Shown one piece after another: positions 3 through 36,857 of a stretch of DNA of 36,857 bases. The notes beneath the pieces are model-generated. The model did not search any database. It saw only the letters and a program-made list of their open reading frames with translations, and was not told the DNA's origin. Position numbers and translations under genes: made by a program. Source of the stretch: Candidatus Tayloriibacteriota bacterium (lineage in GTDB: Bacteria > Patescibacteriota > Minisyncoccia > Phycocordibacterales > PALSA-1337); the NCBI GenBank assembly GCA_003151615.1, contig PLXZ01000001.1, positions 315,267 to 352,123 of the forward strand, in the 5' to 3' direction. How positions within the stretch are numbered: the stretch's first letter is position 1; the number at the start of each line of letters is the position of its first letter.

Positions 3-3000
3 GTCGCGAATTCGTCATCTTCGCTCGCAGCTGCAATTTCAGCCGGTACTACAGCGGTTAATTCAAACACCAACACAGTCGTCGGCAACGCTTCAACCTC
101 ACTGGCTTCAGGCATCAACGCGAACACGACGAGCGTAGTCGGATCGGCGTCGTCTTCATTGGCCTCAGCAATCTCTGCAGTCAATACTTCAGTCTTGAAC
201 GCGTCTTCATCACTCGCAGCCGGTATCAACGCCAACACAAACTCCCAAATCACTTCAGCAATTTCAACGATCAACACCAACACAAACGTAACCGTGCTGA
301 CCGCTTCAACGTCATTGGCAGCAACGATTCCGTTGGCAGTTTGGTCAACGGCAACGCGTTCTCTCACGTCATTCGGCTCGCTCGCCTCTGACGTCTGGAA
401 CATCGCGACCTCGACGCTCACAAATGCGGGTACGATCGGAAATGTCCTGGCGACAAACTCAACCGGTCTCACTGCATCCCAAGTCTGGTCATTCGGTGTG
501 CGAACGATCACGGCTGGTACACTCACTTCAGGAACATTGGCACTGCAGTCTGACGTGACGTCTGCCTCTTCATCGCTCGCCTCGGCCATTTCAGCCGCTT
601 CATCTTCGGTCGCGGCGAGCGTGAATGGCAATACCAACTCTATCGTCGGTTCCGCATCGACCTCGCTCGCGAATGCGATTTCCGCAGGTACAACAGCTGT
701 CAATTCAAACACCAATACGACGGTCGGAAACGCTTCGTCATCTTTGGCATCTGGAATTAATGCCAATACAAATACCAGCGTCTTGGCCGCTTCAACGTCC
801 CTCGGTGCGTCGCTCGCGACAGTCTCGGCCAACGTGACCACGGCAAACGGTAATGTGTTGTCGGCTTCTACATCTCTCGCCTCGGCAATCTCCGGAGTTA
901 ACACCGCGGTCGCGAATTCGTCATCTTCGCTTGCCGCCGCTATCACCGCCGGAACGGCCTCGGTTAACGCCAACACCAACGCCCAAATCGCTGCCGCCGT
1001 CACTACTATCAACGCAAGCACGAGTGCTACGGTGCTAACCGCGTCTACTTCACTCGCCGAAACCATTCCACTCGCGGTTTGGTCGTCGGCAACGCGTTCT
1101 CTCACAACATTTGGAAACCTCGCCTCTGACGTATGGAATATTGCGACATCTACGTTGACGACACCGGGTACGATCGGAAATGTCCTCGCAACAAACTCAA
1201 CCGGTCTCACCGCCTCCGACGTCTGGTCGTTCGGTACGCGAACACTCACCGCCGGTACGCTTACTTCCGGAACATTGGCGCTTCAGTCTGATGTGACAAG
1301 CGCTTCGACGTCGTTAGCCGCGGCAATATCAGCCGGTACGACGGCGGTTAACAGCAATACCAATACGACGGTCGGAAACGCTTCCACTTCACTGGCCGCC
1401 GCTATCACCGCTGCGTCGACGTCAGTGGCTTCAAGTGTCAATGCAAACACAAATTCAGCTATCGCAAACTCGACGAGTTCACTCGCCGCAACGATCAATG
1501 CCAACACGAATTCTATTGTCGGTTCGGCTTCAACATCGCTTGCTTCAGCAATTTCTGGAGTCAATACAGCAGTCGCAAACTCTTCAACGTCACTTGCTTC
1601 GGCAATCTCAGCCGGAACAGCCAGCGTCAATTCCAATACGAATACTATCGTCGGCAACGCATCATCATCAATCGCCGCAGGCGTGAATGCGAACACAAAT
1701 GCAATAGTTCTCGCCGCCTCAACGTCTCTCGGCGCATCCCTTGCAACAGTTTCGACAAACGTGACGACGGCAAACAGCAACATATTGTCGGCTTCAACTT
1801 CACTGGCCGCCGCTATCACCGCGGCATCCACGTCGGTTGCGACAAATGTGAATGCGAATACGAACTCCCAAATCACTTCAGCGATCAGCACGATCGACGC
1901 GAACACGAATGCAACCGTGCTGACTGCGTCTACATCCCTCGCCGCGACAATTCCTCTGGCAGTCTGGGCAAACGCAACGCGTTCTTTGACATCGTTCGGC
2001 ACATTGGCGTCTGACGTCTGGAACATTGCGACGTCGACATTGACGACTCCAGGTAGCATTGGAAATGTGCTGGCGAGCGGTTCTGTCGGCGGCGGCGGTT
2101 CAAATTTGACTGCTGCGGATGTTTGGTCATTCGGCACGCGAACGCTCACCGCCGGAACGCTCACTTCCGGCCAACTCGCGCTTCAGTCTGACGTGACGTC
2201 GGCTTCGTCTTCGCTTGCAACTGCGATTTCCGCAGTCAATACCGAAGTTGCTAACGCTTCCTCATCAATCGCCGCAGGCGTGAATGCAAACACAAATGCA
2301 ACGGTCCTTGCCGCTTCAACGTCACTTGCTTCCGCGATATCAGCCGGAACGGCATCAGTTAATTCAAATACTAATTCTGCGGTTTCAAATTCGAGCACTT
2401 CGCTCGCGGCTGTCATAAATGCCAATACCAATTCAGTGGTCGGCTCGGCATCAACGTCATTGGCCGCGGCAATATCAGCCGGTACAGCTAGCGTCAATTC
2501 GAACACCAACACCGTTGTCCAGAACGCTTCGACATCGCTCGCATCCGCGATTTCGGCAGGAACAGCCGCGGTTAACGCCAACACCAACAGCATCGTAAAC
2601 ACCGCTTCGACCTCAGTTGCGTCCAACGTGAATGCGAATACAAATACAATCGTAAACAATGCGTCGTCGTCTCTTGGTGCGACGCTTGCTTCGCTGCCGG
2701 CGACAATCTGGGCATATAGTTCGCGAACGTTGTCGTCATTTGGAACGCTCGCGACGGACATAACGGCGGACGTATGGAATGCGGCTAACCGAACACTCAC
2801 GTCATTGTCGCTCTCGTCCCAGACTCCATGGGTCGTAACAACTTCGAACTTCGGATCAGTAGTAGCCGGAAGCAATTATCTCGCGACAATTACGACGGTG
2901 TACAACGGAACGCTTACGGATTCGGCAAACCTTCCGACGGTCAGCGTTTATGATCCGAACGGAAATCTTGTCGTCAATGCCGCAAATCTAACCCGAATCG

Positions 3001-3767
3001 CAACCGGTACCTACACATATTCATACGCGACAGCCGGAAATGCCCAGGCCGGAACATGGGAAAGCGTATTCTCGGCTACGGTGGCAACGGGCAACACATT
3101 GCCGGGTATCGATTATTGGACGGTCGTGACGACGCCTGCGCAGGTCAAGATCAACAGCATTACGAACAATGTCACGCCTTCAATCGCGGCAAACGTCACG
3201 ATTACCGATGAAGGCCTGAGCGGCAACGAATACCAGTACGAATGGTGCGTTGTCTCCGATCCAAGCCAGCAGTGCGGTGCCGCGGGAAATGTGTTTGACG
3301 AAGTTGCGGCGAAATACATCAATCAAGGCCAGGATTTCAATACTACGTTAACCGCGACAGTTCCGAATCCGGGCACCTATTACTTCAAACTCGTCGTGTA
3401 CTTCGGCACGGAGGATTCCGTATCGTATCAGTCGTTTACGGCGGTAGCCCCTACGAATAGCGGAGGTTCGGGCGGAAACGGAGGCAGTGGCGGCTCTGGT
3501 GGTTCCGGCGGCTCCGGAGGGGGTGGAGGAGGCGGGGGCGGCGGAGGATTATCGATTCCGGCCGCTTCACCTCCGGCGGTTACCGGAGTATGCGGTAAAC
3601 CTGGAAACTTTAGTTGTAGCGGCAAGGTGAGTGCAGTCGACTTCGCAATCCTTCTGTATTTCTGGGGAACAAAGCCGCCATTCGCCAACAAATACGTCGA
3701 CATGAATCATGACGGAAAGGTGAATGCGATAGACTTCTCGATGTTCTTGTATAACTGGGGCAAATAA
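3..3767 (+). CDS. 5'-truncated giant Ser/Thr/Ala/Asn-rich repeat surface protein with Ig-like region, Gly-rich linker and C-terminal dockerin-like domain
   Basis: Frame stays open from nt 3 through the listed start at 159 (VANSSSSLAAAISAGTTAVNSNTNTVVGNAST...). Dozens of ASTSLAxxI...VNxNTN units; C-terminus has Gly/Ser linker then GNFSCSGKVSAVDFAILLYFWG...VDMNHDGKVNAIDFSMFLYNWGK, with a canonical DxNxDGxVNxxDF loop. Confidence 0.88.
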   Translation, partial: VANSSSSLAAAISAGTTAVNSNTNTVVGNASTSLASGINANTTSVVGSASSSLASAISAVNTSVLNASSSLAAGINANTNSQITSAISTINTNTNVTVLTASTSLAATIPLAVWSTATRSLTSFGSLASDVWNIATSTLTNAGTIGNVLATNSTGLTASQVWSFGVRTITAGTLTSGTLALQSDVTSASSSLASAISAASSSVAASVNGNTNSIVGSASTSLANAISAGTTAVNSNTNTTVGNASSSLASGINANTNTSVLAASTSLGASLATVSANVTTANGNVLSASTSLASAISGVNTAVANSSSSLAAAITAGTASVNANTNAQIAAAVTTINASTSATVLTASTSLAETIPLAVWSSATRSLTTFGNLASDVWNIATSTLTTPGTIGNVLATNSTGLTASDVWSFGTRTLTAGTLTSGTLALQSDVTSASTSLAAAISAGTTAVNSNTNTTVGNASTSLAAAITAASTSVASSVNANTNSAIANSTSSLAATINANTNSIVGSASTSLASAISGVNTAVANSSTSLASAISAGTASVNSNTNTIVGNASSSIAAGVNANTNAIVLAASTSLGASLATVSTNVTTANSNILSASTSLAAAITAASTSVATNVNANTNSQITSAISTIDANTNATVLTASTSLAATIPLAVWANATRSLTSFGTLASDVWNIATSTLTTPGSIGNVLASGSVGGGGSNLTAADVWSFGTRTLTAGTLTSGQLALQSDVTSASSSLATAISAVNTEVANASSSIAAGVNANTNATVLAASTSLASAISAGTASVNSNTNSAVSNSSTSLAAVINANTNSVVGSASTSLAAAISAGTASVNSNTNTVVQNASTSLASAISAGTAAVNANTNSIVNTASTSVASNVNANTNTIVNNASSSLGATLASLPATIWAYSSRTLSSFGTLATDITADVWNAANRTLTSLSLSSQTPWVVTTSNFGSVVAGSNYLATITTVYNGTLTDSANLPTVSVYDPNGNLVVNAANLTRIATGTYTYSYATAGNAQAGTWESVFSATVATGNTLPGIDYWTVVTTPAQVKINSITNNVTPSIAANVTITDEGLSGNEYQYEWCVVSDPSQQCGAAGNVFDEVAAKYINQGQDFNTTLTATVPNPGTYYFKLVVYFGTEDSVSYQSFTAVAPTNSGGSGGNGGSGGSGGSGGSGGGGGGGGGGGLSIPAASPPAVTGVCGKPGNFSCSGKVSAVDFAILLYFWGTKPPFANKYVDMNHDGKVNAIDFSMFLYNWGK
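294..2200 (+). repeat. Three dispersed in-frame copies of an ~85-90 aa VW/RTLT module (about 294-561, 1029-1300, 1914-2200) separated by ASTSLA/NTN stalk repeats; degenerate fourth copy near 2701-2817
   Basis: ASTSLAATIPLAVWSTATRSLTSFGSLASDVWNIATSTLTNAGTIGNVLATNSTGLTASQVWSFGVRTITAGTLTSGTLALQSDVTS recurs with few amino-acid changes but many synonymous nucleotide differences. Confidence 0.85.
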
Positions 3768-3798
3768 GCGGGGTAAAATTATAAATAATTAAAAACAT

Positions 3799-4755
3799 AT
3801 GAAAAACATTATTCAAAAAATAAAATACGCGTCAATCATGGGGTTTCTCGGAACTGTCGCTGTGGTTGCGATACCAGCCTACGCTTCGGCCGCAACGGTT
3901 TATGTTCAGGCTTCGCGAACGACGCTGTCGGTGGGGGATACGGCGATTGTCAGCGTTAAAATTGACGCGGACGGGGGAGTGCTGAACGCGGTATCGGGCA
4001 CAATCGGATTGAAGTCGTCTTCGGCGACGAAACCGGTTTTGGCGGTCCAGCAATTCAGCCTGGGAGGTTCGGCATTTGGTTTGTGGCCGCGTACGCCGTC
4101 GTTATCAACCGATGGAAGTTTGATAACATTCGTTGGCGGAGTTCCCGGCGGTTTCAGCATCGAGGGCGCGACGATGTTTAATATTGTCGTAACGGCCACA
4201 AGCACCGGAACCGTCACCATAACGCCTGAAAACATGTCGGTATATGCAAATGACGGAAAGGGCACGCTCGTTCCGACTCAAATAAAGGGATTGACGATAG
4301 AGGTGGTTCCGGCAAAAGCGGGTTCCGTGCCGGTCAATGATTGGACGACGCTTCTTGCCTCCGACAAGACGGCACCCCAACCGTTCATCATCGTTCTCGG
4401 CCAGGATCCGTCGATTTTTAATGGCGCAAAATTCGCGTATTTCAGCGCGGTCGACAATGTTTCCGGAATTGACCATTATGAAGTCTCCGAAAATGGCGGA
4501 GCTTATGTCAGAAGCGGCAGTACGTATGTATTGCAGGATCAGACAACGCCGGTGACCTTGAGCGTCGTTGCCTACAACAAGGCGGGACTTTCGACGGCGG
4601 CGACGTACGGAATTTCTTCAAGCACGTCAACGTTTGCTTCGGCGCCGACCGCGGTCAAGTTGATTGCGATTGTCATAGTTATTGTCCTGATCGCAATCGT
4701 ATTGGCAATTCTCTGGTTTATATTCCGTAAAATATCGAAAAGACGAAAAGTATAG
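3799..4755 (+). CDS. Cohesin-like domain protein with signal peptide, Ig-like domain and C-terminal TM anchor
   Basis: Hydrophobic N-terminus; ATVYVQASRTTLSVGDTAIVSVKIDADGG...SLITFVGGVPGGFSIEGATMFNIVVTATSTGTVTI resembles the cohesin fold pattern; C-terminal LIAIVIVIVLIAIVLAILWFIFRKISKRRKV. Confidence 0.75.
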   Translation: MKNIIQKIKYASIMGFLGTVAVVAIPAYASAATVYVQASRTTLSVGDTAIVSVKIDADGGVLNAVSGTIGLKSSSATKPVLAVQQFSLGGSAFGLWPRTPSLSTDGSLITFVGGVPGGFSIEGATMFNIVVTATSTGTVTITPENMSVYANDGKGTLVPTQIKGLTIEVVPAKAGSVPVNDWTTLLASDKTAPQPFIIVLGQDPSIFNGAKFAYFSAVDNVSGIDHYEVSENGGAYVRSGSTYVLQDQTTPVTLSVVAYNKAGLSTAATYGISSSTSTFASAPTAVKLIAIVIVIVLIAIVLAILWFIFRKISKRRKV

Positions 4756-4766
4756 GCGTTTAACAC

Positions 4767-6536
4767 ATGTTTCCAAGGACCCTTATAAAAAGAAATAGCC
4801 GAGCGCTCATTATGTCATTCATCATGACGTGGCTGTTCTTTTTTGCGTTGTCGGCGACGTCGGTTCATGCCGCGACGCTGACGTTCAGTCCGGTTACGGC
4901 GGCGGTTCAGGCCGGCAATATCGTCTCGGTCAAGGTTCTCGTCAATACCGACGGTGCGGACATCAATACGGTCGTAGCCACGATTCAGTTTCCGCCAAAT
5001 TTGCTTCAGGTAATGTCGATCGACCAAAGTTCCTCGATATTTTCACTGTGGGCTCAAAATCCGACGTTCTCAAATTCGGCCGGAACGGTGACTTTTACCG
5101 GCGGACTTCCGACTCCCGGTTTTACCGGGCAAAACGGGGAAATCGTCTCGATTATTTTCCGCGCATTAAAATCGGGCAGCGCGTCGCTCATTTATTCCAA
5201 CGCTTCCGTTTTGCAAAACGACGGCCTTGGTACGGATGTTTTGGATGCGACACAAGCCGGAACGATTGTCATTAAATCCGCGGCGCAGAGCCAGCCGGCA
5301 AATTCAGAAACTTCAAGCAGTGTGCCGCCGTTGCCGGTCATAACTTCAACGACAGATCCCAAACAAGACGCGTGGTATTCGAATACGTCCGCCGAATTCG
5401 GTTGGATGATTCCGAGCGGCGTGACGTCGATCGAAACCATTTTGAGCAAAAATCCAGACGCGACGCCGACCCAGATTTACGACAATTCGGTTTCCCAGCG
5501 GACGGTTGACGGTATCGCCGACGGTGTTTGGTACTTCAATCTTCGTTACATGAACGCAAACGGCTGGGGTCCGACGGCAAGTTACAAGATCAAAGTCGAT
5601 TCGACGCCTCCGCAGAACTTCGCTCTCAACGTGGGGACGCAGAATTCGCACAACATCGTCACGCTCGACGCAATCGACGCAATGTCGGGCATCGACCATT
5701 ATTCGGTGCAAATCGACGATGGGTCGCCCGTCAATGTCGCGGAGTCGAGTCTTCCTTCAAACGATAGCTATGTCTTGCCGACGCAAAATGAGAGAGAGCA
5801 CAGTCTCGTCGTAAACGCATACGACAAAGCCGGCAATTCAAGGGCATCCGACGCGCAATTTACGAGTCCGGCGATCGTTGCCCCGACTATTTCTCTTGCG
5901 CTTGCCGCTCCCAACGCTCAGACTGCCAATGCCACTTCTTCCGAATTCAAACGAGGCGATATCCTCAGCGTGACGGGTCAGACCCAGTATCCGAATACGA
6001 CAATCAATGTCTTCCTCAAAGCCGAAGGAACAGAGGCGAAAGAATACACGGTAACGACTCTCGCCGACGGATCCTATTCACTGCTGTCCGACCCGATTAC
6101 CAATACGGGGATAACGACCGCCTGGTCGCAACTGGCATTTTCCGGGGATGTACGGAGTCCTCTTTCAAATACGGTCAGCATTGCCGTCACTGACGGACTC
6201 ATAGTCCAAACCAGCAAATCACTCATATATATGCTCTCATACGCCATTCCCGCGACGCTTCTGCTCCTCGCCCTGTTATTTGCGCTCTATTTCGGCTGGC
6301 ATAAATTCTTCGGCTTGAAACGCCGCCTCAACAAGGAAGTTCAGCAGACCGTGAACGAAGCTCACCGCGCGCTCATGATATTCAAGGATGAATTAAATCG
6401 CCAATTAAAACAGCTCGAAAAAATAAAAGGAGACCGCGAGCTCAACAAAAAAGAGGAAAAAATATTCAAGGAACTTCAGGATAATATTGACGATATCGAC
6501 GCATTCATTGCGAAGAATCTGAAGAAAATTAGATAG
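4767..6536 (+). CDS. Cohesin-like domain protein with Ig-like domains, C-terminal TM and cytoplasmic coiled-coil tail
   Basis: ATLTFSPVTAAVQAGNIVSVKVLVNTDGADINTVVATIQFPPNLLQV...GTVTFTGGLPTPGFTGQNGEIVSIIFRALKSGSASLIY (cohesin-like); TM near SYAIPATLLLLALLFALYF; charged helical tail. Confidence 0.78.
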   Translation: MFPRTLIKRNSRALIMSFIMTWLFFFALSATSVHAATLTFSPVTAAVQAGNIVSVKVLVNTDGADINTVVATIQFPPNLLQVMSIDQSSSIFSLWAQNPTFSNSAGTVTFTGGLPTPGFTGQNGEIVSIIFRALKSGSASLIYSNASVLQNDGLGTDVLDATQAGTIVIKSAAQSQPANSETSSSVPPLPVITSTTDPKQDAWYSNTSAEFGWMIPSGVTSIETILSKNPDATPTQIYDNSVSQRTVDGIADGVWYFNLRYMNANGWGPTASYKIKVDSTPPQNFALNVGTQNSHNIVTLDAIDAMSGIDHYSVQIDDGSPVNVAESSLPSNDSYVLPTQNEREHSLVVNAYDKAGNSRASDAQFTSPAIVAPTISLALAAPNAQTANATSSEFKRGDILSVTGQTQYPNTTINVFLKAEGTEAKEYTVTTLADGSYSLLSDPITNTGITTAWSQLAFSGDVRSPLSNTVSIAVTDGLIVQTSKSLIYMLSYAIPATLLLLALLFALYFGWHKFFGLKRRLNKEVQQTVNEAHRALMIFKDELNRQLKQLEKIKGDRELNKKEEKIFKELQDNIDDIDAFIAKNLKKIR

Positions 6537-6538
6537 TG

Positions 6539-7303
6539 CTACATGACCGGCGAAACGGTGGTGGTGACGGATGAAGATGCATTTATCCATTGTAATGCGC
6601 CCATTTTGACGTCGGCATACATTTTTTTGGTCGTCGTTGCCGCGCCTTTGATGTAATCGATTTCGATGACTCCGTTTCCAATGGTGATTGCAGCCGGCTT
6701 TATTTTATCGCCCAAAAAAAGTAGGTTTGTTCCGATGTGACCGGTCGATGTGGCGATGGCCGCCGTGAGATAGTAGACGGAGCCGAGCTGCGGGTCGTTT
6801 CGCGGGATGATGAATGCCACGTCGCTCATACCGTCAGCATTCAAATCGCCGTCGGCTTCCAATCCGCCGAAATACTGCTGTTGGGTTTGCGTGATAGTCG
6901 ACGACGCCGGTTTTGCCAATGCCGCGATGACGGATGCCGTTTGTTGGAAGGCGTTTTCGGGAACGGCTATGTTTATTTTTGAGCCGAATACCTGTTCCGT
7001 GCCCGTTGCCGCTATCGTCAAAATCATTGCCGCGGCAATGGTTATCGGTTTATCGACGGTTTTTATTATCAAGCCGATGATTGCGCCGTAGACCGCGTAT
7101 ACAATGACGAAAAAGACAAAAGAAACCGCCAGCTGGTCGTTTTGCGGAATCGTAAAGAGATTTATGGCCGGTTGCAGTGAAATCCAGCCGAGCAGGTCGC
7201 CGACAAAACCGCCCGTCGTCGTTTCAAACGTGAGATATGCCGCGACGATGACGCCGATAAAAATTCCAATGATACTCGTCTCCAGAACCGTGAATTTTTT
7301 CAT
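6539..7303 (-). CDS. Membrane protein with FG-GAP-like/Ca-binding-like segment (DLNADGMSDVAFI), function unknown
   Basis: 254 aa ORF with several N-terminal hydrophobic segments; convergent with the preceding gene (2 bp between stops). Confidence 0.7.
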   Translation of the reverse strand: MKKFTVLETSIIGIFIGVIVAAYLTFETTTGGFVGDLLGWISLQPAINLFTIPQNDQLAVSFVFFVIVYAVYGAIIGLIIKTVDKPITIAAAMILTIAATGTEQVFGSKINIAVPENAFQQTASVIAALAKPASSTITQTQQQYFGGLEADGDLNADGMSDVAFIIPRNDPQLGSVYYLTAAIATSTGHIGTNLLFLGDKIKPAAITIGNGVIEIDYIKGAATTTKKMYADVKMGALQWINASSSVTTTVSPVM

Positions 7304-11992: not shown

Positions 11993-14014
11993 TTACTGGC
12001 ATAAAACCGAGAGCAATTTTGAAACAGAGAGCGTCGCGACTCCGGTTACCGAATCCGCGCCGCCGTAGTACATAAAAAGAGTGTCTTTGCGGATGACTGC
12101 GCCGCAAGGGAATACGACGTTGCCGACCTGGCCCCTGAGCTCGTAGTCCATTTCAGGGGACAGGAGAGCGTCGGTGGTCCGGGCAATGACTTCCGTAGGG
12201 TCTTTCAGGTCAAGGAGGGCCGCTCCGACGCGGTATATGTTCCTTTCCGATATGCCGTGATATATGAGCAGCCAGCCTTTTTTTGTTTTGATTGGTGGAG
12301 CGGATATACCGATTTTTCGTTCATCCCACATGCCGGGTCGCGGACGGAGAATTTCGATGCATTTATTTATTTTCTCGTTTTTGAAGTCGAGGCTGTTGAA
12401 GTAATCGGCGCAGATATTCGTGCCGACGCGGTGGAATACCAGATACTTCATGCCGCCGTTTATTCCGCTTGCGGTTTTTACTTTTTCAGGCAGGAGGCAG
12501 CTGTCCTTGTCATCGACTTGCGTCGGGCTTATCAAATACGGCTTGTCCCAGTTCCATTTTTGGGCGATGAAATCTTTCACTGAAATACCGGTGACGGCGA
12601 TTGCCGGCATATCGATGCCGTCGTACGCGGTGTAGGTCATGTACAGCCGTTCGCCGATTTTAACGATGCGAGGGTCCTCGCAGCCGCTGTTGCCGCCCGG
12701 CACGCGCTTCATTTCAAAAGGTTCGCGCGGCACATATATCGGCTCGGGAAGGCGTTTTGTAATATGCAGGCCGTCGGTGCTTTCCGCGTATCCGACTGTT
12801 GAAGTATTGTCGTTGGACATGGCACGGTAGAGAATGCGAACTTTGCCCCCGATATCGATTGCCGCGGGATTAAAGACAGCTTTTGATTCCCACGAAAGTT
12901 CAGTCGGCTTCAAAATCGGATTTTCGCCGGAACGGACGACAAGTTCCGCGGCCGATGTAGGAATCATGCTGTCGAGAAGATCGTCGAGATTCACATGCGC
13001 CCGCGCACAGGTCGTATCAGCCGCTCCGTAATATATTTCAAGAGTTTGATTTTTGCCCGTACCTCTCAGAAAGCCGCCGGAAGGGAAGGCAACGCCGGGT
13101 ACGAAACCGTATTCCTCGTATATTTCTTCGGGAGCGACGATTGGCCCCTTTGTTTTGCCGATGACCATTTCAGGATTTTCGAGGTCAAGAAGAAGAGCTT
13201 CAATTCCGAAGACTTTTTGCTGGCCGTCGAAATAATGCTGGATATGGGAATAAATGAAAAGCCAACCTTTTTTGGTTTTGATCGGCGGGGCGCCGATTTC
13301 GGTATGGTCGCTTGGAAAACGGCGCATGTCCAGGACGTTTGACGCGGAATGGCCGCCTGTGCTCCCGTTTGCTCCTGTTGAATTTAATTTCGCATACCAT
13401 TGTGCCCAGGCGTTTTCGTCCCACAAGTCTTCCATGCGGTCGAAATAGGCGAATGCGATTTTTGCCGGCGGCATGTCCGTGTTTACCGTGAGGGCGACGA
13501 GGATTTTTCCGTTAATTCGCTCCGGAAAGAGAATCATAGCCTTGGCATTGAACGGCGTGACAAGATGCTTTTCCTGAATTGTCTTGAAATCCTCGGTTAT
13601 TGCGACGGCGACTTTTATGCCGGCTGCGTTAAAGGGGAAATTCGAAAGCGCGGTGTAAAAAATATAATATTTTCCTTCGAAAAAAGTGACGCGCGGATCC
13701 TCGCAACCGAACTGTTCCCAGGGCAATTGGGGCTCTATCAGTTTCCGTCGGTTTTCAAAGTGGATGCCATCCTTGCTGTCCGCATAACCGACTACTGACA
13801 AATGCTCGGGTCCTTTCAAAGGCCCGGCTGATTCGGCCGGTCCCATGGCCCGGTAGACGCAGCGGGTATGGCTGTTTTCGCTATTATTCTTTCCTGTTTT
13901 TCCTCCGATTTTTCCCTGAATCGGGCACCAATTAAAGGCCGCTACCGACTCCCACAGGTTTTCTTTGGTCGGGACGAGCAGGGGATTGTGCCGGGATTTT
14001 TTTACAACAAACAT
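11993..14014 (-). CDS. Tandem two-module GH130-type glycoside phosphorylase/hydrolase (673 aa)
   Basis: Both halves carry GCEDPR and five-bladed-propeller-like repeats (FGCEDPRVTFFEGKYYIFYTA; SGCEDPRIVKIGERLYMTYTA); C-terminal half has KGWLLIYHGISERNIYRVGAALLDL. Confidence 0.88.
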   Translation of the reverse strand: MFVVKKSRHNPLLVPTKENLWESVAAFNWCPIQGKIGGKTGKNNSENSHTRCVYRAMGPAESAGPLKGPEHLSVVGYADSKDGIHFENRRKLIEPQLPWEQFGCEDPRVTFFEGKYYIFYTALSNFPFNAAGIKVAVAITEDFKTIQEKHLVTPFNAKAMILFPERINGKILVALTVNTDMPPAKIAFAYFDRMEDLWDENAWAQWYAKLNSTGANGSTGGHSASNVLDMRRFPSDHTEIGAPPIKTKKGWLFIYSHIQHYFDGQQKVFGIEALLLDLENPEMVIGKTKGPIVAPEEIYEEYGFVPGVAFPSGGFLRGTGKNQTLEIYYGAADTTCARAHVNLDDLLDSMIPTSAAELVVRSGENPILKPTELSWESKAVFNPAAIDIGGKVRILYRAMSNDNTSTVGYAESTDGLHITKRLPEPIYVPREPFEMKRVPGGNSGCEDPRIVKIGERLYMTYTAYDGIDMPAIAVTGISVKDFIAQKWNWDKPYLISPTQVDDKDSCLLPEKVKTASGINGGMKYLVFHRVGTNICADYFNSLDFKNEKINKCIEILRPRPGMWDERKIGISAPPIKTKKGWLLIYHGISERNIYRVGAALLDLKDPTEVIARTTDALLSPEMDYELRGQVGNVVFPCGAVIRKDTLFMYYGGADSVTGVATLSVSKLLSVLCQ

Positions 14015-16011
14015 GGCGTAATTTTTAAATGGGGTTGGCGATCGCGGAGCAAGCTTTCAACAAGTTCGTTTACGGGAACAGTGGCCACGCAGGTGACCAT
14101 GTCGGCACCGCCATAGTATATATGAAGCATGCCGTCGATATCAACGGCTCCTCCGGGATAGACGATTCCCGATTTGCCACGTCCGCCCTCATAGCTGTTT
14201 TCATACTGTTCATCGGGTTCCAAAATTGGTTTGCGGCTGCGGGCGATTGCTTTCCATGGTTGTTTCAAATCCAAAAGCATCGCTCCGATTTTATATTTCG
14301 AAGAATCCTGCCTATCAACTGCCGAATAGATGGCGAGCCAGCCGTGCGGTGTCCGTATCGGAGCCGTACCCATGCTCATTTTCTGGCTGTCCCAGTAGGA
14401 GCGTCGCGGTCTAATGGAATAGAGATTTCGAAGCCATCGTTTTCCTTCGCCGAATTCCAGTTTCGGCACAAGGTCGACCATGATATTCGGCCAAACGCGG
14501 TGAAAGACGACATATTTCTCCGTGCCGTCTTCGTCGATAATTTTTTCCGGCAATATTACGACGCTCTTGCTGCCGACATTTGGCGGGGACATCAGTTGCG
14601 GCTTTGCCCACTTCCATTTTTTATTCAAAAAGTCCTTTTTGCCAATTGAAGTGAGCGCGCTCCTCATCGGCCAGCCGCCGTCATGGGCGACGAATGTCAT
14701 GTAAACTCTTCCGTCAATGTTCGTTGCTTTCGGATCCTCACAGCCGCCCCAGCTTCCGCCGGAAGAAAAAAGAGACATGTCCTCGCCGTCGGCCAAATCG
14801 GGAATTTCGTGCTTGTGAAGGGAATAGACCGGCTTTACTCCGCGTTCGCTGATTCGTACGCCGTCGGTCGTGGCCGCATGTCCGATGCGCGACCAGCCGT
14901 CGTTTCCGACGGCGCGGTAGAGCAGATGAACCTTTCCGTCCAGACGTACAACCGCCGGGTTAAAAACTCCGTCATATTCCCAGCCCTTTTGGGACGGCTT
15001 CATGATCGGATTTTCCGGCGCACGCTTTGCCCGCGTCACGCGTCCGCTTTTATGGTCGGCAATATGCTCCAGAGGGAATTCAAACAGATGGATTTTCCCG
15101 GCCTTGTCGGAGAAATAAAAACGGACACCGTGCATAGTGTATTCCTTTTTCGACTTGCTTTTTGGGTCCATTTCCGGATGTATCGGGGTGACTCCGATGA
15201 ACGAAATCTGTCCGTCGCTTTCGACCGATATTTCCATGAGCGGCAGTTCCGTTTGCCATATGAGCTGGGTCGGATTCTTACTCGAAAAGAGGGCGCAGCC
15301 GATTTTAACGAAATGCTCGTCGCCGATTTTCTTGTTATGCAAATGGTCGTCGATGAGGATGTCGGCTTTCATCCGCGATTCATAAAAAAGGGCGATGCCT
15401 CCGCCGGCAATGATGCCGTCCGGCACTGCGATTGCACCGACGATGTTGAAAGGCAGGCCTTCGAAAAAATTCCAGTGCGGCGCGCGGGCGGGAAAAACAA
15501 TTTTCCACGAGCGCAAATTTTGCGAAATGGCGGTTTCAATTTGGCCGCCGTTTGAATAAATGACGTCGCCGGCGCCGTCTTCCAATTCAGGAATCAAAAT
15601 TCCGGGCTTCTTCACTTCCTTGACGGTTCCTCCGACGACCCAGGTGATAAAATCCTCGGTCGAAGCGTACGCGAACTCGGGACCATGCGTACCCTGACGC
15701 ACATATGCCAAAGTCATGTCGTCATCGTGGCAGAAAAATTTAAAGTCACGGCAGTGGGCAAGATTTTCGTCAACTTTTTTTCCACGCGGTCCGATGCGGA
15801 CGAGATGCGCATGTTCGGGTTTGCCGGTGAAGACGCTTTCTCCGTGTCCGCGAACGATTGCGAGCCCGTGTTCGCGCGGCTCTTTTTTTCCACGAATAAT
15901 CTTCATCAGAAGAAAGACTTCCTTTTTATGATAGCCGACCGCGAGAGGTATTTTTTGTGAATGAGCGTCAGGAGTTATGCCAATTTTTTTAGTTTTTTTT
16001 ATAGGAGCCAT
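14002..16011 (-). CDS. GH130-like protein (669 aa) with divergent N-terminal propeller-like half and C-terminal GH130 module
   Basis: C-terminal half has GGCEDPKATNIDGRVYMTFVAHDG, FHRVWPNIMVDL, KIGAMLLDLKQP; the N-terminal half lacks GCEDP. Overlaps the next gene by 13 nt. Confidence 0.85.
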   Translation of the reverse strand: MAPIKKTKKIGITPDAHSQKIPLAVGYHKKEVFLLMKIIRGKKEPREHGLAIVRGHGESVFTGKPEHAHLVRIGPRGKKVDENLAHCRDFKFFCHDDDMTLAYVRQGTHGPEFAYASTEDFITWVVGGTVKEVKKPGILIPELEDGAGDVIYSNGGQIETAISQNLRSWKIVFPARAPHWNFFEGLPFNIVGAIAVPDGIIAGGGIALFYESRMKADILIDDHLHNKKIGDEHFVKIGCALFSSKNPTQLIWQTELPLMEISVESDGQISFIGVTPIHPEMDPKSKSKKEYTMHGVRFYFSDKAGKIHLFEFPLEHIADHKSGRVTRAKRAPENPIMKPSQKGWEYDGVFNPAVVRLDGKVHLLYRAVGNDGWSRIGHAATTDGVRISERGVKPVYSLHKHEIPDLADGEDMSLFSSGGSWGGCEDPKATNIDGRVYMTFVAHDGGWPMRSALTSIGKKDFLNKKWKWAKPQLMSPPNVGSKSVVILPEKIIDEDGTEKYVVFHRVWPNIMVDLVPKLEFGEGKRWLRNLYSIRPRRSYWDSQKMSMGTAPIRTPHGWLAIYSAVDRQDSSKYKIGAMLLDLKQPWKAIARSRKPILEPDEQYENSYEGGRGKSGIVYPGGAVDIDGMLHIYYGGADMVTCVATVPVNELVESLLRDRQPHLKITPCLL

Positions 16012-32990: not shown

Positions 32991-33869
32991 CTAGAATTGG
33001 AAATAAATGAACTGCTGTGCTCCGAACCGGGCGAATATCACCAGCGCAAAAATGATTGCGTAATAATAGAGCCAACGGACGGATGTTTTTTGCAGGGCGA
33101 TTTTCTGCCAGATTGTCTGTTGTCTCTCGATCAGTTCCGCGATGATAATTATTGCAATGCCGCAGGCGGATATTACGAAGTCGCCTTTGTTCGCGAGACC
33201 GGAAAGCGAAAAGAGATTTTTCCAGGTGTAATAATTGTAGGCGTGCGCGATAAAACTGCCGAGTCCGACCTGCCAGTGCGACAAAATGTACCAGGCATCG
33301 CTGATTTTATTCACCCGGAAGAAAACCCAGCCGATGCATACCAAGACGAACGTCACTGCGATGCGCCAATAGTTCAGGATTTTCGGATATCGGTCGAGGC
33401 CGATTTTTGCCGTCAGGGTGCTCCGATATTTTTTGGTCATCTCCGAGAACGTTATATAGAAGCCGAACAGCAGACCCATGATGACGTAATTCCAGCCCGC
33501 TCCGTGCCAGAGACCGATCAGAAAAAAAGTAAATATGATTGCGCCGTACAATTTCGTCCGCGTCAGATTTTTCGTACTGCGGGCGATGGGAAAATAAACG
33601 TAATCGCGCAGCCATGAGGAAAGCGAAATGTGCCATCTTCGCCAGAATTCGGCGATTGATTTTGAAAAATACGGCCGCTGGAAGTTTTCAATCAAATTTA
33701 TTCCCATGACCTGCGCCGAACCGAGCGCGATGTCGGTGTATCCGGAGAAGTCGCAATATAATTGAAAAGCAAAAAATAGTGTGCCCATTATCAGCGTCGG
33801 TCCGTTGAATCCCTGCGGATTGGCGTAAATGATGTTGACGAAAATTGCCAGGTGATCCGCTACAACCAT
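32991..33869 (-). CDS. MBOAT (AlgI-like) O-acyltransferase, C-terminal fragment separated by frameshift
   Basis: MVVADHLAIFVN...FQLYCDFSGYTDIALGSAQVMGINLIENFQRPYFSKSIAEFWRRWHISLSSWLRDYVYFPI; GLWHGAGWNYVIMG. Confidence 0.88.
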   Translation of the reverse strand: MVVADHLAIFVNIIYANPQGFNGPTLIMGTLFFAFQLYCDFSGYTDIALGSAQVMGINLIENFQRPYFSKSIAEFWRRWHISLSSWLRDYVYFPIARSTKNLTRTKLYGAIIFTFFLIGLWHGAGWNYVIMGLLFGFYITFSEMTKKYRSTLTAKIGLDRYPKILNYWRIAVTFVLVCIGWVFFRVNKISDAWYILSHWQVGLGSFIAHAYNYYTWKNLFSLSGLANKGDFVISACGIAIIIIAELIERQQTIWQKIALQKTSVRWLYYYAIIFALVIFARFGAQQFIYFQF

Positions 33870-34480
33870 TTTTTTGAAGAATCCCAGGCCATTCTCTTCA
33901 GGCCCTTCGTCACGCGGTCCGCGTCAAAATGATGCTCGGCATGGAATTGTGGCAGTAAATGCTGTGGACGCTCGATCGGACCGGCAACGAGCTGGGGATA
34001 AAACATGACGTAGAGGGCGTATATGCCGAAATGGCGCTCGGCCTTCTGAGCGCCGCGGTAGACTTCGATGGTATAGCTGAGCGCCTGAAACGTATGGAAT
34101 GAAAGGCCGATGGGAAGCAATATTGACAGAAGTGGAAGGGAATAATTCCAGTCCAAAAAATGGGCGACATAATTTATGTTGCCGATGAAGAAATCATAAT
34201 ATTTGAAAAAAGCCAGGACGCCGATGTTTGCAACGATACTGATCACGAGGAGAAGTTTTTTTCTTGACCCCATCGCATTTTCCATGAGAATGCCGGCGCA
34301 ATAGTTCACGACGATGGTTCCGCCGAGCACCAGAATATATATCGGTATGAAGGCCATATAGAAGTAGCAGCTGGCGAGCAGGAGTAGAAGCCACCGGAAA
34401 CGATAGGGTATCAGAAAATATGCCGTCGTTACGATGGTGAAGAAAAAAATGAATTGTATCGAGTTGAAAATCATAGACAA
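33860..34480 (-). CDS. MBOAT (AlgI-like) O-acyltransferase, N-terminal fragment separated by frameshift
   Basis: PIGLSFHTFQALSYTIEVYRG; MFYPQLVAGPIERPQHLLPQF; ends GLKRMAWDSSKKWL* where AlgI-like proteins have GxxKK(V/M)V(I/V)AD. Confidence 0.88.
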   Translation of the reverse strand: MSMIFNSIQFIFFFTIVTTAYFLIPYRFRWLLLLLASCYFYMAFIPIYILVLGGTIVVNYCAGILMENAMGSRKKLLLVISIVANIGVLAFFKYYDFFIGNINYVAHFLDWNYSLPLLSILLPIGLSFHTFQALSYTIEVYRGAQKAERHFGIYALYVMFYPQLVAGPIERPQHLLPQFHAEHHFDADRVTKGLKRMAWDSSKKWL

Positions 34481-36091: not shown

Positions 36092-36857
36092 TTAGAATTT
36101 GAAGTAGATGAAGGTTTGTCCCGCAAAATATCCGCCGAATATGATTGCGGCCATTATCGCGTAATACCATGCGTAACGGAGAGCTGCCGTTTTATTTTCA
36201 AATATGTACAGCGTCTTTTTCTTCGCCTGATAGTATTGGACGATTTCCATCGCCACGACCGCAAAAAATGCCGGAATCACGATGACGCGGACTCCCACAT
36301 AAATTGGATTATATAATACCTGGGTGATGAAATAATGTATGTGGATCGGAGAGAAGACATATTTTACATACCATAATGCCCGGGCCAGATTTTCCGATCT
36401 GAAAAAAATGAGGCTGAATGCGAAGAGGGCAAAAACAATTAATTGCTGAATAATTCTGTGCAATCGCGGCATTTTTTCGAGGCCGATTGTCTTCACTATT
36501 TTTTTTCTGATATCAACGGTCATCGTTCCGATTATCATATATATGCCCTGGAGCGCGCCGAAAACAACGAACGTCCAGTTCGCTCCGTGCCAGAGGCCGA
36601 TCACGACGAATGTTATGAAAAGGCTCAAATATAATTTATATTTTTTCACTTTCCGCCAGCTGAATGCCATGGGATAATACAGGTAATCACGCAGCCACGA
36701 CGACAGCGACATATGCCATTTTCTCCAGAAATCGGCCACGCTGGTTGCGGAAAAAGGCCGGTCGAAGTTTTCCCGGAGGTCAATGCCGAGAAGCATCGCC
36801 GAACCGAGTGCGATGTCGGTGTATCCGGAAAAGTCGCAATACAATTGATACGTGAAC
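36092..36857 (-). CDS. MBOAT (AlgI-like) O-acyltransferase, truncated by window end
   Basis: Frame open to the window edge (FTYQLYCDFSGYTDIALGSAMLLGIDLRENFDRPFSATSVADFWRKWHMSLSSWLRDYLYYPM; GLWHGANWTFVVFG). Confidence 0.92.
   Translation of the reverse strand, partial: FTYQLYCDFSGYTDIALGSAMLLGIDLRENFDRPFSATSVADFWRKWHMSLSSWLRDYLYYPMAFSWRKVKKYKLYLSLFITFVVIGLWHGANWTFVVFGALQGIYMIIGTMTVDIRKKIVKTIGLEKMPRLHRIIQQLIVFALFAFSLIFFRSENLARALWYVKYVFSPIHIHYFITQVLYNPIYVGVRVIVIPAFFAVVAMEIVQYYQAKKKTLYIFENKTAALRYAWYYAIMAAIIFGGYFAGQTFIYFKF

What the first reader, a model, noticed from the sequence alone, without database searches (positions are those of the whole stretch)
3..6536. Putative non-cellulosomal cohesin/dockerin surface-display operon
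Seen: a >1,250-aa repeat protein ends in a dockerin-like domain and is followed on the same strand (31 and 11 nt gaps) by two secreted, C-terminally TM-anchored proteins whose N-terminal domains look like cohesins. Established: cohesin-dockerin pairs are high-affinity assembly modules, best known in clostridial cellulosomes, with scattered non-cellulosomal occurrences reported. Inference: the giant stalk is exported and docked on either membrane cohesin, which would be a reversible, non-sortase way to display an adhesin on a reduced-genome, probably host-dependent cell. No carbohydrase is present in this operon, arguing against a cellulosome role.
Basis: partly seen in the sequence, partly recalled or inferred. 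Interest (0 to 1): 0.9.

Follow-up and report, generated by a model that had tools for sequence, protein, structure and literature searches.

The report
Cohesin–dockerin anchor for surface stalks
A tiny-genome bacterium, and many of its relatives, carry a three-gene set in which a long secreted stalk ends in a molecular plug (dockerin) and the next two genes make membrane proteins carrying the matching sockets (cohesins), most likely a non-covalent way to hold variable stalk proteins on the cell surface.

Summary
The repeat protein ends in a Dockerin_1 domain (32.5 bits, cut-off 22.9). It is followed by two membrane-anchored proteins. COH2 passes Pfam Cohesin (36.7 bits, cut-off 24.1). COH1 fails Pfam but is a cohesin by homology and predicted fold (pLDDT 94.7; best match 2w1n, a cohesin–FnIII construct). 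The genome has one dockerin and two cohesins, all in this operon. The repeat protein really starts upstream of the window, across a 2-N scaffold gap: about 2,040 aa, with a signal peptide, directly behind tatC. The trio dockerin protein > COH1 > COH2 is conserved: 61 of 63 related loci with enough upstream sequence carry a dockerin protein there, and 62 of 63 carry COH1. The anchors stay the same while the dockerin proteins differ greatly in length (237 to over 5,000 aa) and domains (VW-repeats, FnIII, MG2, Big_6); no enzyme family recurs in 67 of them. Dockerin divergence tracks the COH2 cohesin domain more than the rest of COH2. Best explanation: a dedicated, non-covalent surface-display operon. 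Binding itself was not tested. Cohesin–dockerin anchoring is known from cellulosomes and scattered elsewhere; I found no paper describing this patescibacterial operon.

The parts
3..3767 (+). Repeat stalk protein, C-terminal 1,254 aa; the 5' part (signal peptide, N-terminal domain, further repeats) lies upstream at C5:312894 onwards, beyond a 2-N gap
   Evidence: ORF; upstream locus and gap; Ala/Ser/Thr/Asn-rich, 15 VW-type motifs
2934..3071 (+). MG2-like Ig-type segment before the dockerin (below Pfam cut-off here; MG2 significant in relatives)
   Evidence: MG2 16.9 bits; MG2 arrays in relatives' passengers
3603..3764 (+). Dockerin domain: two F-hand loop-helix repeats; loop 1 degenerate (N-x-S-x-S with a nearby Cys pair), loop 2 canonical (D-x-N-x-D-G)
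   Evidence: PF00404 32.5 bits; 49/49 homologues match PF00404; model pLDDT 85.7, top matches all dockerins
3799..4755 (+). COH1: signal peptide, cohesin, Ig/FnIII-like domain, C-terminal TM helix, short cytosolic tail
3892..4293 (+). Cohesin domain of COH1
   Evidence: Foldseek matches to solved cohesins incl. 2w1n, 2jh2, 2xdh; profile match to cellulosomal cohesin 5aoz E 3e-4
4660..4716 (+). COH1 transmembrane helix
   Evidence: hydropathy 3.58
4767..6536 (+). COH2: signal peptide, cohesin, Ig-like domains, TM helix, about 78-aa charged, helical-looking cytosolic tail
4872..5270 (+). Cohesin domain of COH2
   Evidence: PF00963 36.7 bits, cut-off 24.1; 36.2 bits
6231..6287 (+). COH2 transmembrane helix
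   Evidence: hydropathy 2.23
6300..6533 (+). COH2 cytosolic tail, conserved across relatives (invariant R557, L559, E563)
   Evidence: alignment A1

Best explanation
This is a dedicated non-covalent surface-display operon. The stalk protein is exported through Sec by its signal peptide, and its C-terminal dockerin then plugs into the cohesin head of a membrane-anchored partner (COH2 and/or COH1). The stalk is thereby held at the outside of the cytoplasmic membrane without an LPXTG motif or a TM segment of its own. The two anchors are a conserved chassis; the passenger on the dockerin is exchangeable between species (VW-repeat stalks, FnIII arrays, MG2 arrays, Ig adaptors). Shown: the domains, the membrane topology signals, one dockerin and two cohesins in the genome, the conserved gene order, the variable passengers, and correlated divergence of dockerin and COH2 cohesin. 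Inferred: physical binding, orientation in the envelope, and an adhesin-like function of the stalk.
For: Dockerin passes Pfam; top-ranked PDB fold matches are dockerins. COH2 passes Pfam Cohesin; COH1 is a cohesin by fold and family. One dockerin and two cohesins in 923 kb, all in this operon. Of 80 named genome loci, 63 have at least 2 kb upstream of COH2: 61 carry a dockerin protein and 62 carry COH1 there. At phylum level dockerin and cohesin co-occur (54 genomes; Fisher P 1.8e-10) and 23 dockerins have a cohesin downstream within 4 kb against 5 upstream. Passengers are Ig/FnIII/MG2/repeat proteins; no catalytic family recurs in 67. Dockerin distances correlate with COH2 cohesin (0.67) more than with COH2 Ig region (0.32) or tail (0.22); bootstrap interval of the first difference 0.23-0.48.
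Against: No binding was predicted or measured. The window's dockerin loop 1 has lost the usual Asp residues at calcium positions 1 and 5, so one calcium site may be weak. The correlation test is not corrected for shared ancestry, and within the 18 repeat-type loci, the class to which the window belongs, the difference is not significant. Gene order in related genomes is not independent evidence genome by genome. The adhesive role of the stalk rests on its domain make-up only.
Confidence: 0.76

Rival explanations
1. Only COH2 is the dockerin receptor; COH1 binds something else, or assists assembly, so the complex is not 'either cohesin'.
For: Dockerin divergence tracks the COH2 cohesin better than the COH1 cohesin (difference 0.04-0.26 over all loci). 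COH2 passes Pfam Cohesin while the window's COH1 does not.
Against: COH1 is present in 62 of 63 loci and is a cohesin by fold. In L130 COH1 and COH2 are one polypeptide. In the repeat-type class the two correlations are about equal. Some genomes have only one short cohesin beside the dockerin (G036, G041, G011).
Confidence: 0.3
2. The pair works in trans: the dockerin stalk is released and bridges cells or a matrix by binding cohesins on neighbouring cells.
For: The stalk has no membrane anchor of its own apart from its signal peptide; nothing in the sequence fixes cis binding.
Against: Tight operon linkage and short gaps suggest co-production; adaptor-type passengers of about 350 aa encoded next to pilin-like and membrane genes fit a cis anchor.
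Confidence: 0.12
3. A cellulosome-like enzyme scaffold for polysaccharide breakdown.
For: A true scaffoldin-and-enzyme locus exists in another patescibacterial genome: L182 with two cohesins plus dockerin, and Apiosidase/Cellulase/CBM_6 enzymes with dockerins.
Against: No catalytic domain in this operon and none recurring among 67 orthologous passengers; one cohesin per protein rather than an array; a single dockerin in the genome.
Confidence: 0.03
4. Cohesin and dockerin folds are used as plain structural modules that do not bind each other.
For: No binding data; dockerin loop 1 is degenerate in the window.
Against: Operon linkage of two known interaction partners in 61 of 63 loci and correlated divergence strongest for the cohesin domain.
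Confidence: 0.07

Closest known systems
Cellulosome surface anchoring by type II cohesin-dockerin (Clostridium thermocellum CipA DocII with SdbA; review PMC5817068) and Ruminococcus DocB-CohE (PMC7456326)
   Same: A C-terminal dockerin of a large extracellular protein plugs into a cohesin on a cell-surface protein; the window's dockerin model is closest to type II dockerins (2y3n, 5g5d, 2b59).
   Different: No enzymes and no scaffoldin array; the cohesins sit on TM helices rather than SLH domains or a wall-linked protein; two paralogous anchors; a dedicated three-gene operon.
Clostridium perfringens cohesin-FnIII and NagJ-NagH cohesin-dockerin modules (PDB 2w1n, 2jh2, 2ozn)
   Same: Non-cellulosomal; the same cohesin followed by FnIII/Ig-like module order as COH1.
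   Different: There they link secreted hydrolases to each other (own knowledge); here TM-anchored receptors carry a non-enzymatic stalk.
Scattered non-cellulosomal cohesins/dockerins in all domains of life (Peer 2009, PMC3035643, not held and known here only from citing papers; Archaeoglobus cohesin 2xdh; Omnitrophota giant protein with nine dockerins, PMC10066038)
   Same: Cohesin or dockerin modules in organisms without cellulosomes.
   Different: Here the pair is in one conserved operon with a clear anchor/passenger division.
Essential dockerin protein SEML1_0315 of Southlakia epibionticum (Saccharibacteria; PMC10633639)
   Same: A dockerin envelope protein in a reduced-genome patescibacterium.
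   Different: The authors suggested it targets host glycans; whether a cohesin partner is encoded nearby was not examined here.
TMEM132 family (PMC6030884)
   Same: Cohesin plus tandem bacterial-type Ig domains plus TM, proposed as adhesion molecules.
   Different: Animal proteins without a detectable dockerin partner.

Membership tests
Dockerin (PF00404, type I) | Profile match above curated cut-off | tested here: met
   32.5 bits against 22.9; 49/49 homologues match
Dockerin (PF00404, type I) | Duplicated F-hand loop-helix with two calcium-binding loops | tested here: inconclusive
   Two repeats and two helices are present; loop 2 canonical, loop 1 lacks Asp at positions 1 and 5 in this genome though present in most relatives
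Dockerin (PF00404, type I) | Dockerin fold | tested here: met
   Top 18 Foldseek matches are dockerins, best probability 1.00; E-values are weak (0.056 at best), as the domain is short
Cohesin (PF00963), COH2 | Profile match above curated cut-off | tested here: met
   36.7 bits against 24.1
Cohesin (PF00963), COH1 | Profile match above curated cut-off | tested here: not met
   Window COH1 not listed; 7 of 49 orthologues match at E <= 0.01
Cohesin (PF00963), COH1 | Cohesin fold | tested here: met
   Model pLDDT 94.7; 2w1n E 4.5e-11, 2jh2, 2xdh and other cohesins. TM-scores normalised to single-cohesin targets reach about 0.75; over the two-domain query they are about 0.43
Cohesin-dockerin pair | Specific high-affinity, usually calcium-dependent binding | not testable with these tools
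   No multimer modelling or assay available
Cellulosome | Dockerin-bearing carbohydrate-active enzymes | tested here: not met
   No catalytic family recurring in 67 passengers; one dockerin in the genome
Cellulosome | Scaffoldin with several cohesins | tested here: not met
   One cohesin in each of two proteins
Sortase/LPXTG display | LPXTG-type sorting signal | tested here: not met
   No LPXTG-like motif in the three proteins, although the genome has one sortase

The most novel reading that the evidence does not exclude
A general patescibacterial display platform: two conserved membrane cohesins serve as a universal socket into which lineages plug different dockerin-tagged surface structures (repeat stalks, FnIII/MG2 adhesins, and small adaptors next to pilin-like operons), replacing covalent anchoring in reduced genomes; essential dockerin proteins such as that of Southlakia would then be read as plugs rather than glycan binders.
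Probability: 0.45. Interest if true: 0.87.

Novelty: new variant of a known kind. Interest (0 to 1): 0.75.

Why it matters
How patescibacteria, most known only from metagenomes and presumed to live attached to hosts, hold large adhesins on their surface is largely unknown. A conserved socket-and-plug operon gives a concrete and easily tested mechanism, explains why dockerins occur in organisms without cellulosomes, and offers a reinterpretation of a dockerin protein shown to be essential in a cultivated relative (PMC10633639). It also supplies a large natural set of matched cohesin–dockerin pairs (366 related stretches found in one genome collection).

Tried and rejected
Whole-protein Pfam scan of COH2 missed the cohesin; the domain alone found it. 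Phmmer of COH1 against PDB gave nothing useful; profile and fold searches did. A dockerin and a cohesin in one frame in G007 (L086) turned out to lie in an RHS/YD-repeat-type neighbourhood unrelated to this operon. Folding an artificial dockerin-cohesin fusion was considered and dropped, because it would not be a natural protein and no coordinates or interface scores are returned. The Tat route for the stalk was considered because tatC lies directly upstream: signal peptides of orthologous stalks show no conserved twin-arginine motif (by eye), so Sec is preferred. Membership of the adaptor-type operons in the NCBIfam 'Pam pilus' family: only weak matches below cut-off, and the family is found in 1 of 60 relatives; no paper on it was found. 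Peer 2009 could not be read.

Full report
The window lies at C5:315267-352123 of a 923-kb, five-contig patescibacterial genome. The left edge of the window is not the start of the gene: two N bases stand directly before it, with the same nine bases on both sides, which suggests a scaffold join inside repeats. The reading frame upstream begins at C5:312894 with a signal peptide and an N-terminal domain shared with the stalks of relatives, and overlaps the end of tatC by four bases. The protein is therefore about 2,040 aa if nothing is missing in the gap; the true repeat number is unknown.

Domain identity. The last 68 aa match Pfam Dockerin_1 at 32.5 bits (cut-off 22.9) and 49 of 49 homologues match it. 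A profile of them finds solved cellulosomal dockerins (E 1e-7), and the predicted fold has dockerins as its best 18 matches, with type II complexes first. COH2 passes Pfam Cohesin (36.7 bits, cut-off 24.1). COH1 does not, so its status needed more: it is homologous to COH2, 7 of 49 orthologues match Pfam Cohesin, a profile finds the cellulosomal cohesin 5aoz at E 3e-4, and the model of its outer part (pLDDT 94.7) matches cohesins throughout the top ranks, first of all 2w1n, a cohesin followed by an FnIII module from Clostridium perfringens, the same order as in COH1. Both proteins have a signal peptide and one C-terminal TM helix; COH2 adds a conserved cytosolic tail.

Conservation. The genome has one dockerin and two cohesins by lineage-specific profiles, all in this operon. 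The same trio is found across relatives. A scan of named bacterial genomes found 366 stretches encoding relatives of COH2; the 80 best were read. Among the 63 with at least 2 kb of sequence upstream of COH2, 61 carry a dockerin protein and 62 carry COH1. In one locus (L130) COH1 and COH2 are one polypeptide with the dockerin protein directly upstream. Organisms named in the records include Nomurabacteria, Adlerbacteria, Wolfebacteria, Portnoybacteria, Falkowbacteria, Magasanikbacteria, Doudnabacteria and others. In a phylum-wide sample of 287 genomes, dockerins occur in 107, cohesins in 81, both in 54 (Fisher P 1.8e-10, not corrected for ancestry); 23 dockerins have a cohesin within 4 kb downstream on the same strand, against 5 upstream.

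What changes and what stays. The two anchors stay. The dockerin protein ranges from 237 aa (smallest complete one) to 5,194 aa and carries VW-repeats as in the window, arrays of 8-10 FnIII domains, arrays of MG2 domains, InlB B-repeats or Big_6 Ig domains. No enzyme family recurs among 67 of them. This is what a socket with exchangeable plugs should look like.

Co-divergence. Over 58 loci, pairwise distances between dockerins correlate with those of the COH2 cohesin at 0.67 and of the COH1 cohesin at 0.52, but with the COH2 Ig region at 0.32 and tail at 0.22; the bootstrap interval of the difference between COH2 cohesin and COH2 Ig is 0.23 to 0.48. Within the 40 adaptor-type loci the difference remains (0.11 to 0.39); within the 18 repeat-type loci, to which the window belongs, it is not significant. 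The COH1 Ig region also correlates with the dockerin (0.59), so the signal is not confined to cohesin domains. The test is not corrected for shared descent and the regions differ in length and rate, so it is supporting evidence only.

Mechanism, with its status. Export by Sec: inferred from the signal peptide. Anchoring of COH1 and COH2 in the membrane with cohesins outside: inferred from sequence. Dockerin-cohesin docking: inferred from family knowledge, operon conservation and co-divergence; not shown. Adhesive role of the stalk: inferred from domain types only. The window's dockerin has an unusual first loop, with N and S where relatives have D and D, and a nearby pair of cysteines; binding in this species could therefore rest on the second loop or be weaker. 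The operon carries no LPXTG-like motif; the genome has one sortase, and 12 of the 19 relatives with a COH2 match show none, so the system does not depend on a sortase.

Comparison. Cohesin-dockerin anchoring to the cell surface is known from cellulosomes, where a type II cohesin sits on a surface protein, usually with SLH domains (PMC5817068), or a cohesin is covalently attached to the wall (PMC7456326), and isolated modules occur widely. In patescibacteria, one dockerin protein was found to be essential in Southlakia epibionticum and was interpreted as glycan-targeting (PMC10633639). I found no paper that describes a cohesin-dockerin operon in this phylum (the library is open-access only). 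I therefore rate it a new variant of a known kind.

Noticed in passing
L002:13116-13898 (C5:312115-312897): A tatC gene overlaps the start of the stalk gene; tatC also lies upstream of the dockerin stalk in L068, L075, L107, L108, L109, L129 and L160. Reason unknown, since the stalk signal peptides do not look Tat-type.
   Followed up: partly
L002:5266-13065: Upstream of tatC: a protein with a Tat-like KRSFLK signal, large repeat proteins (a counterpart in L107 weakly matches a phage tail-fibre family), and a protein with a Glucosaminidase domain (31.7 bits). Similar genes precede tatC in relatives.
   Followed up: partly
L112, L116, L123, L128, L138, L141 (upstream of COH1): A second class of the operon: pilin-like small and large secreted proteins (weak NCBIfam CPR_Pam_pilin_C matches), a membrane protein weakly like WxL-interacting proteins, a dockerin protein of about 350 aa with Big_6-type Ig domains, then COH1 and COH2. 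Possibly a pilus-like structure anchored by cohesins.
   Followed up: partly
L182 (G126:C27:3000-20000): A cellulosome-like locus in another patescibacterial genome: a 939-aa protein with two cohesins and a C-terminal dockerin, beside several dockerin proteins with Apiosidase/Cellulase, CBM_6 and beta-helix domains. Contamination of the assembly was not excluded.
   Followed up: partly
window 3603-3764: Dockerin loop 1 is degenerate (GNFSCSG) with a nearby Cys pair, while most relatives keep the D-x-N-x-D pattern.
   Followed up: no
window 6539-7303 (-): A 254-aa protein with two TM helices and a weak FG-GAP match; homologues lie next to the operon in L068, L071, L074 and L075, mostly on the same strand as the operon, opposite to the window.
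   Followed up: no
window 32991-34480 (-): An MBOAT-like acyltransferase (by eye) appears split into two overlapping frames (206 and 292 aa), a possible frameshift or assembly error; a second copy is cut by the window end at 36092-36856.
   Followed up: no
window 11993-16011 (-): Two tandem proteins of about 670 aa that resemble GH130-type phosphorylases by eye, without signal peptide; not tested.
   Followed up: no
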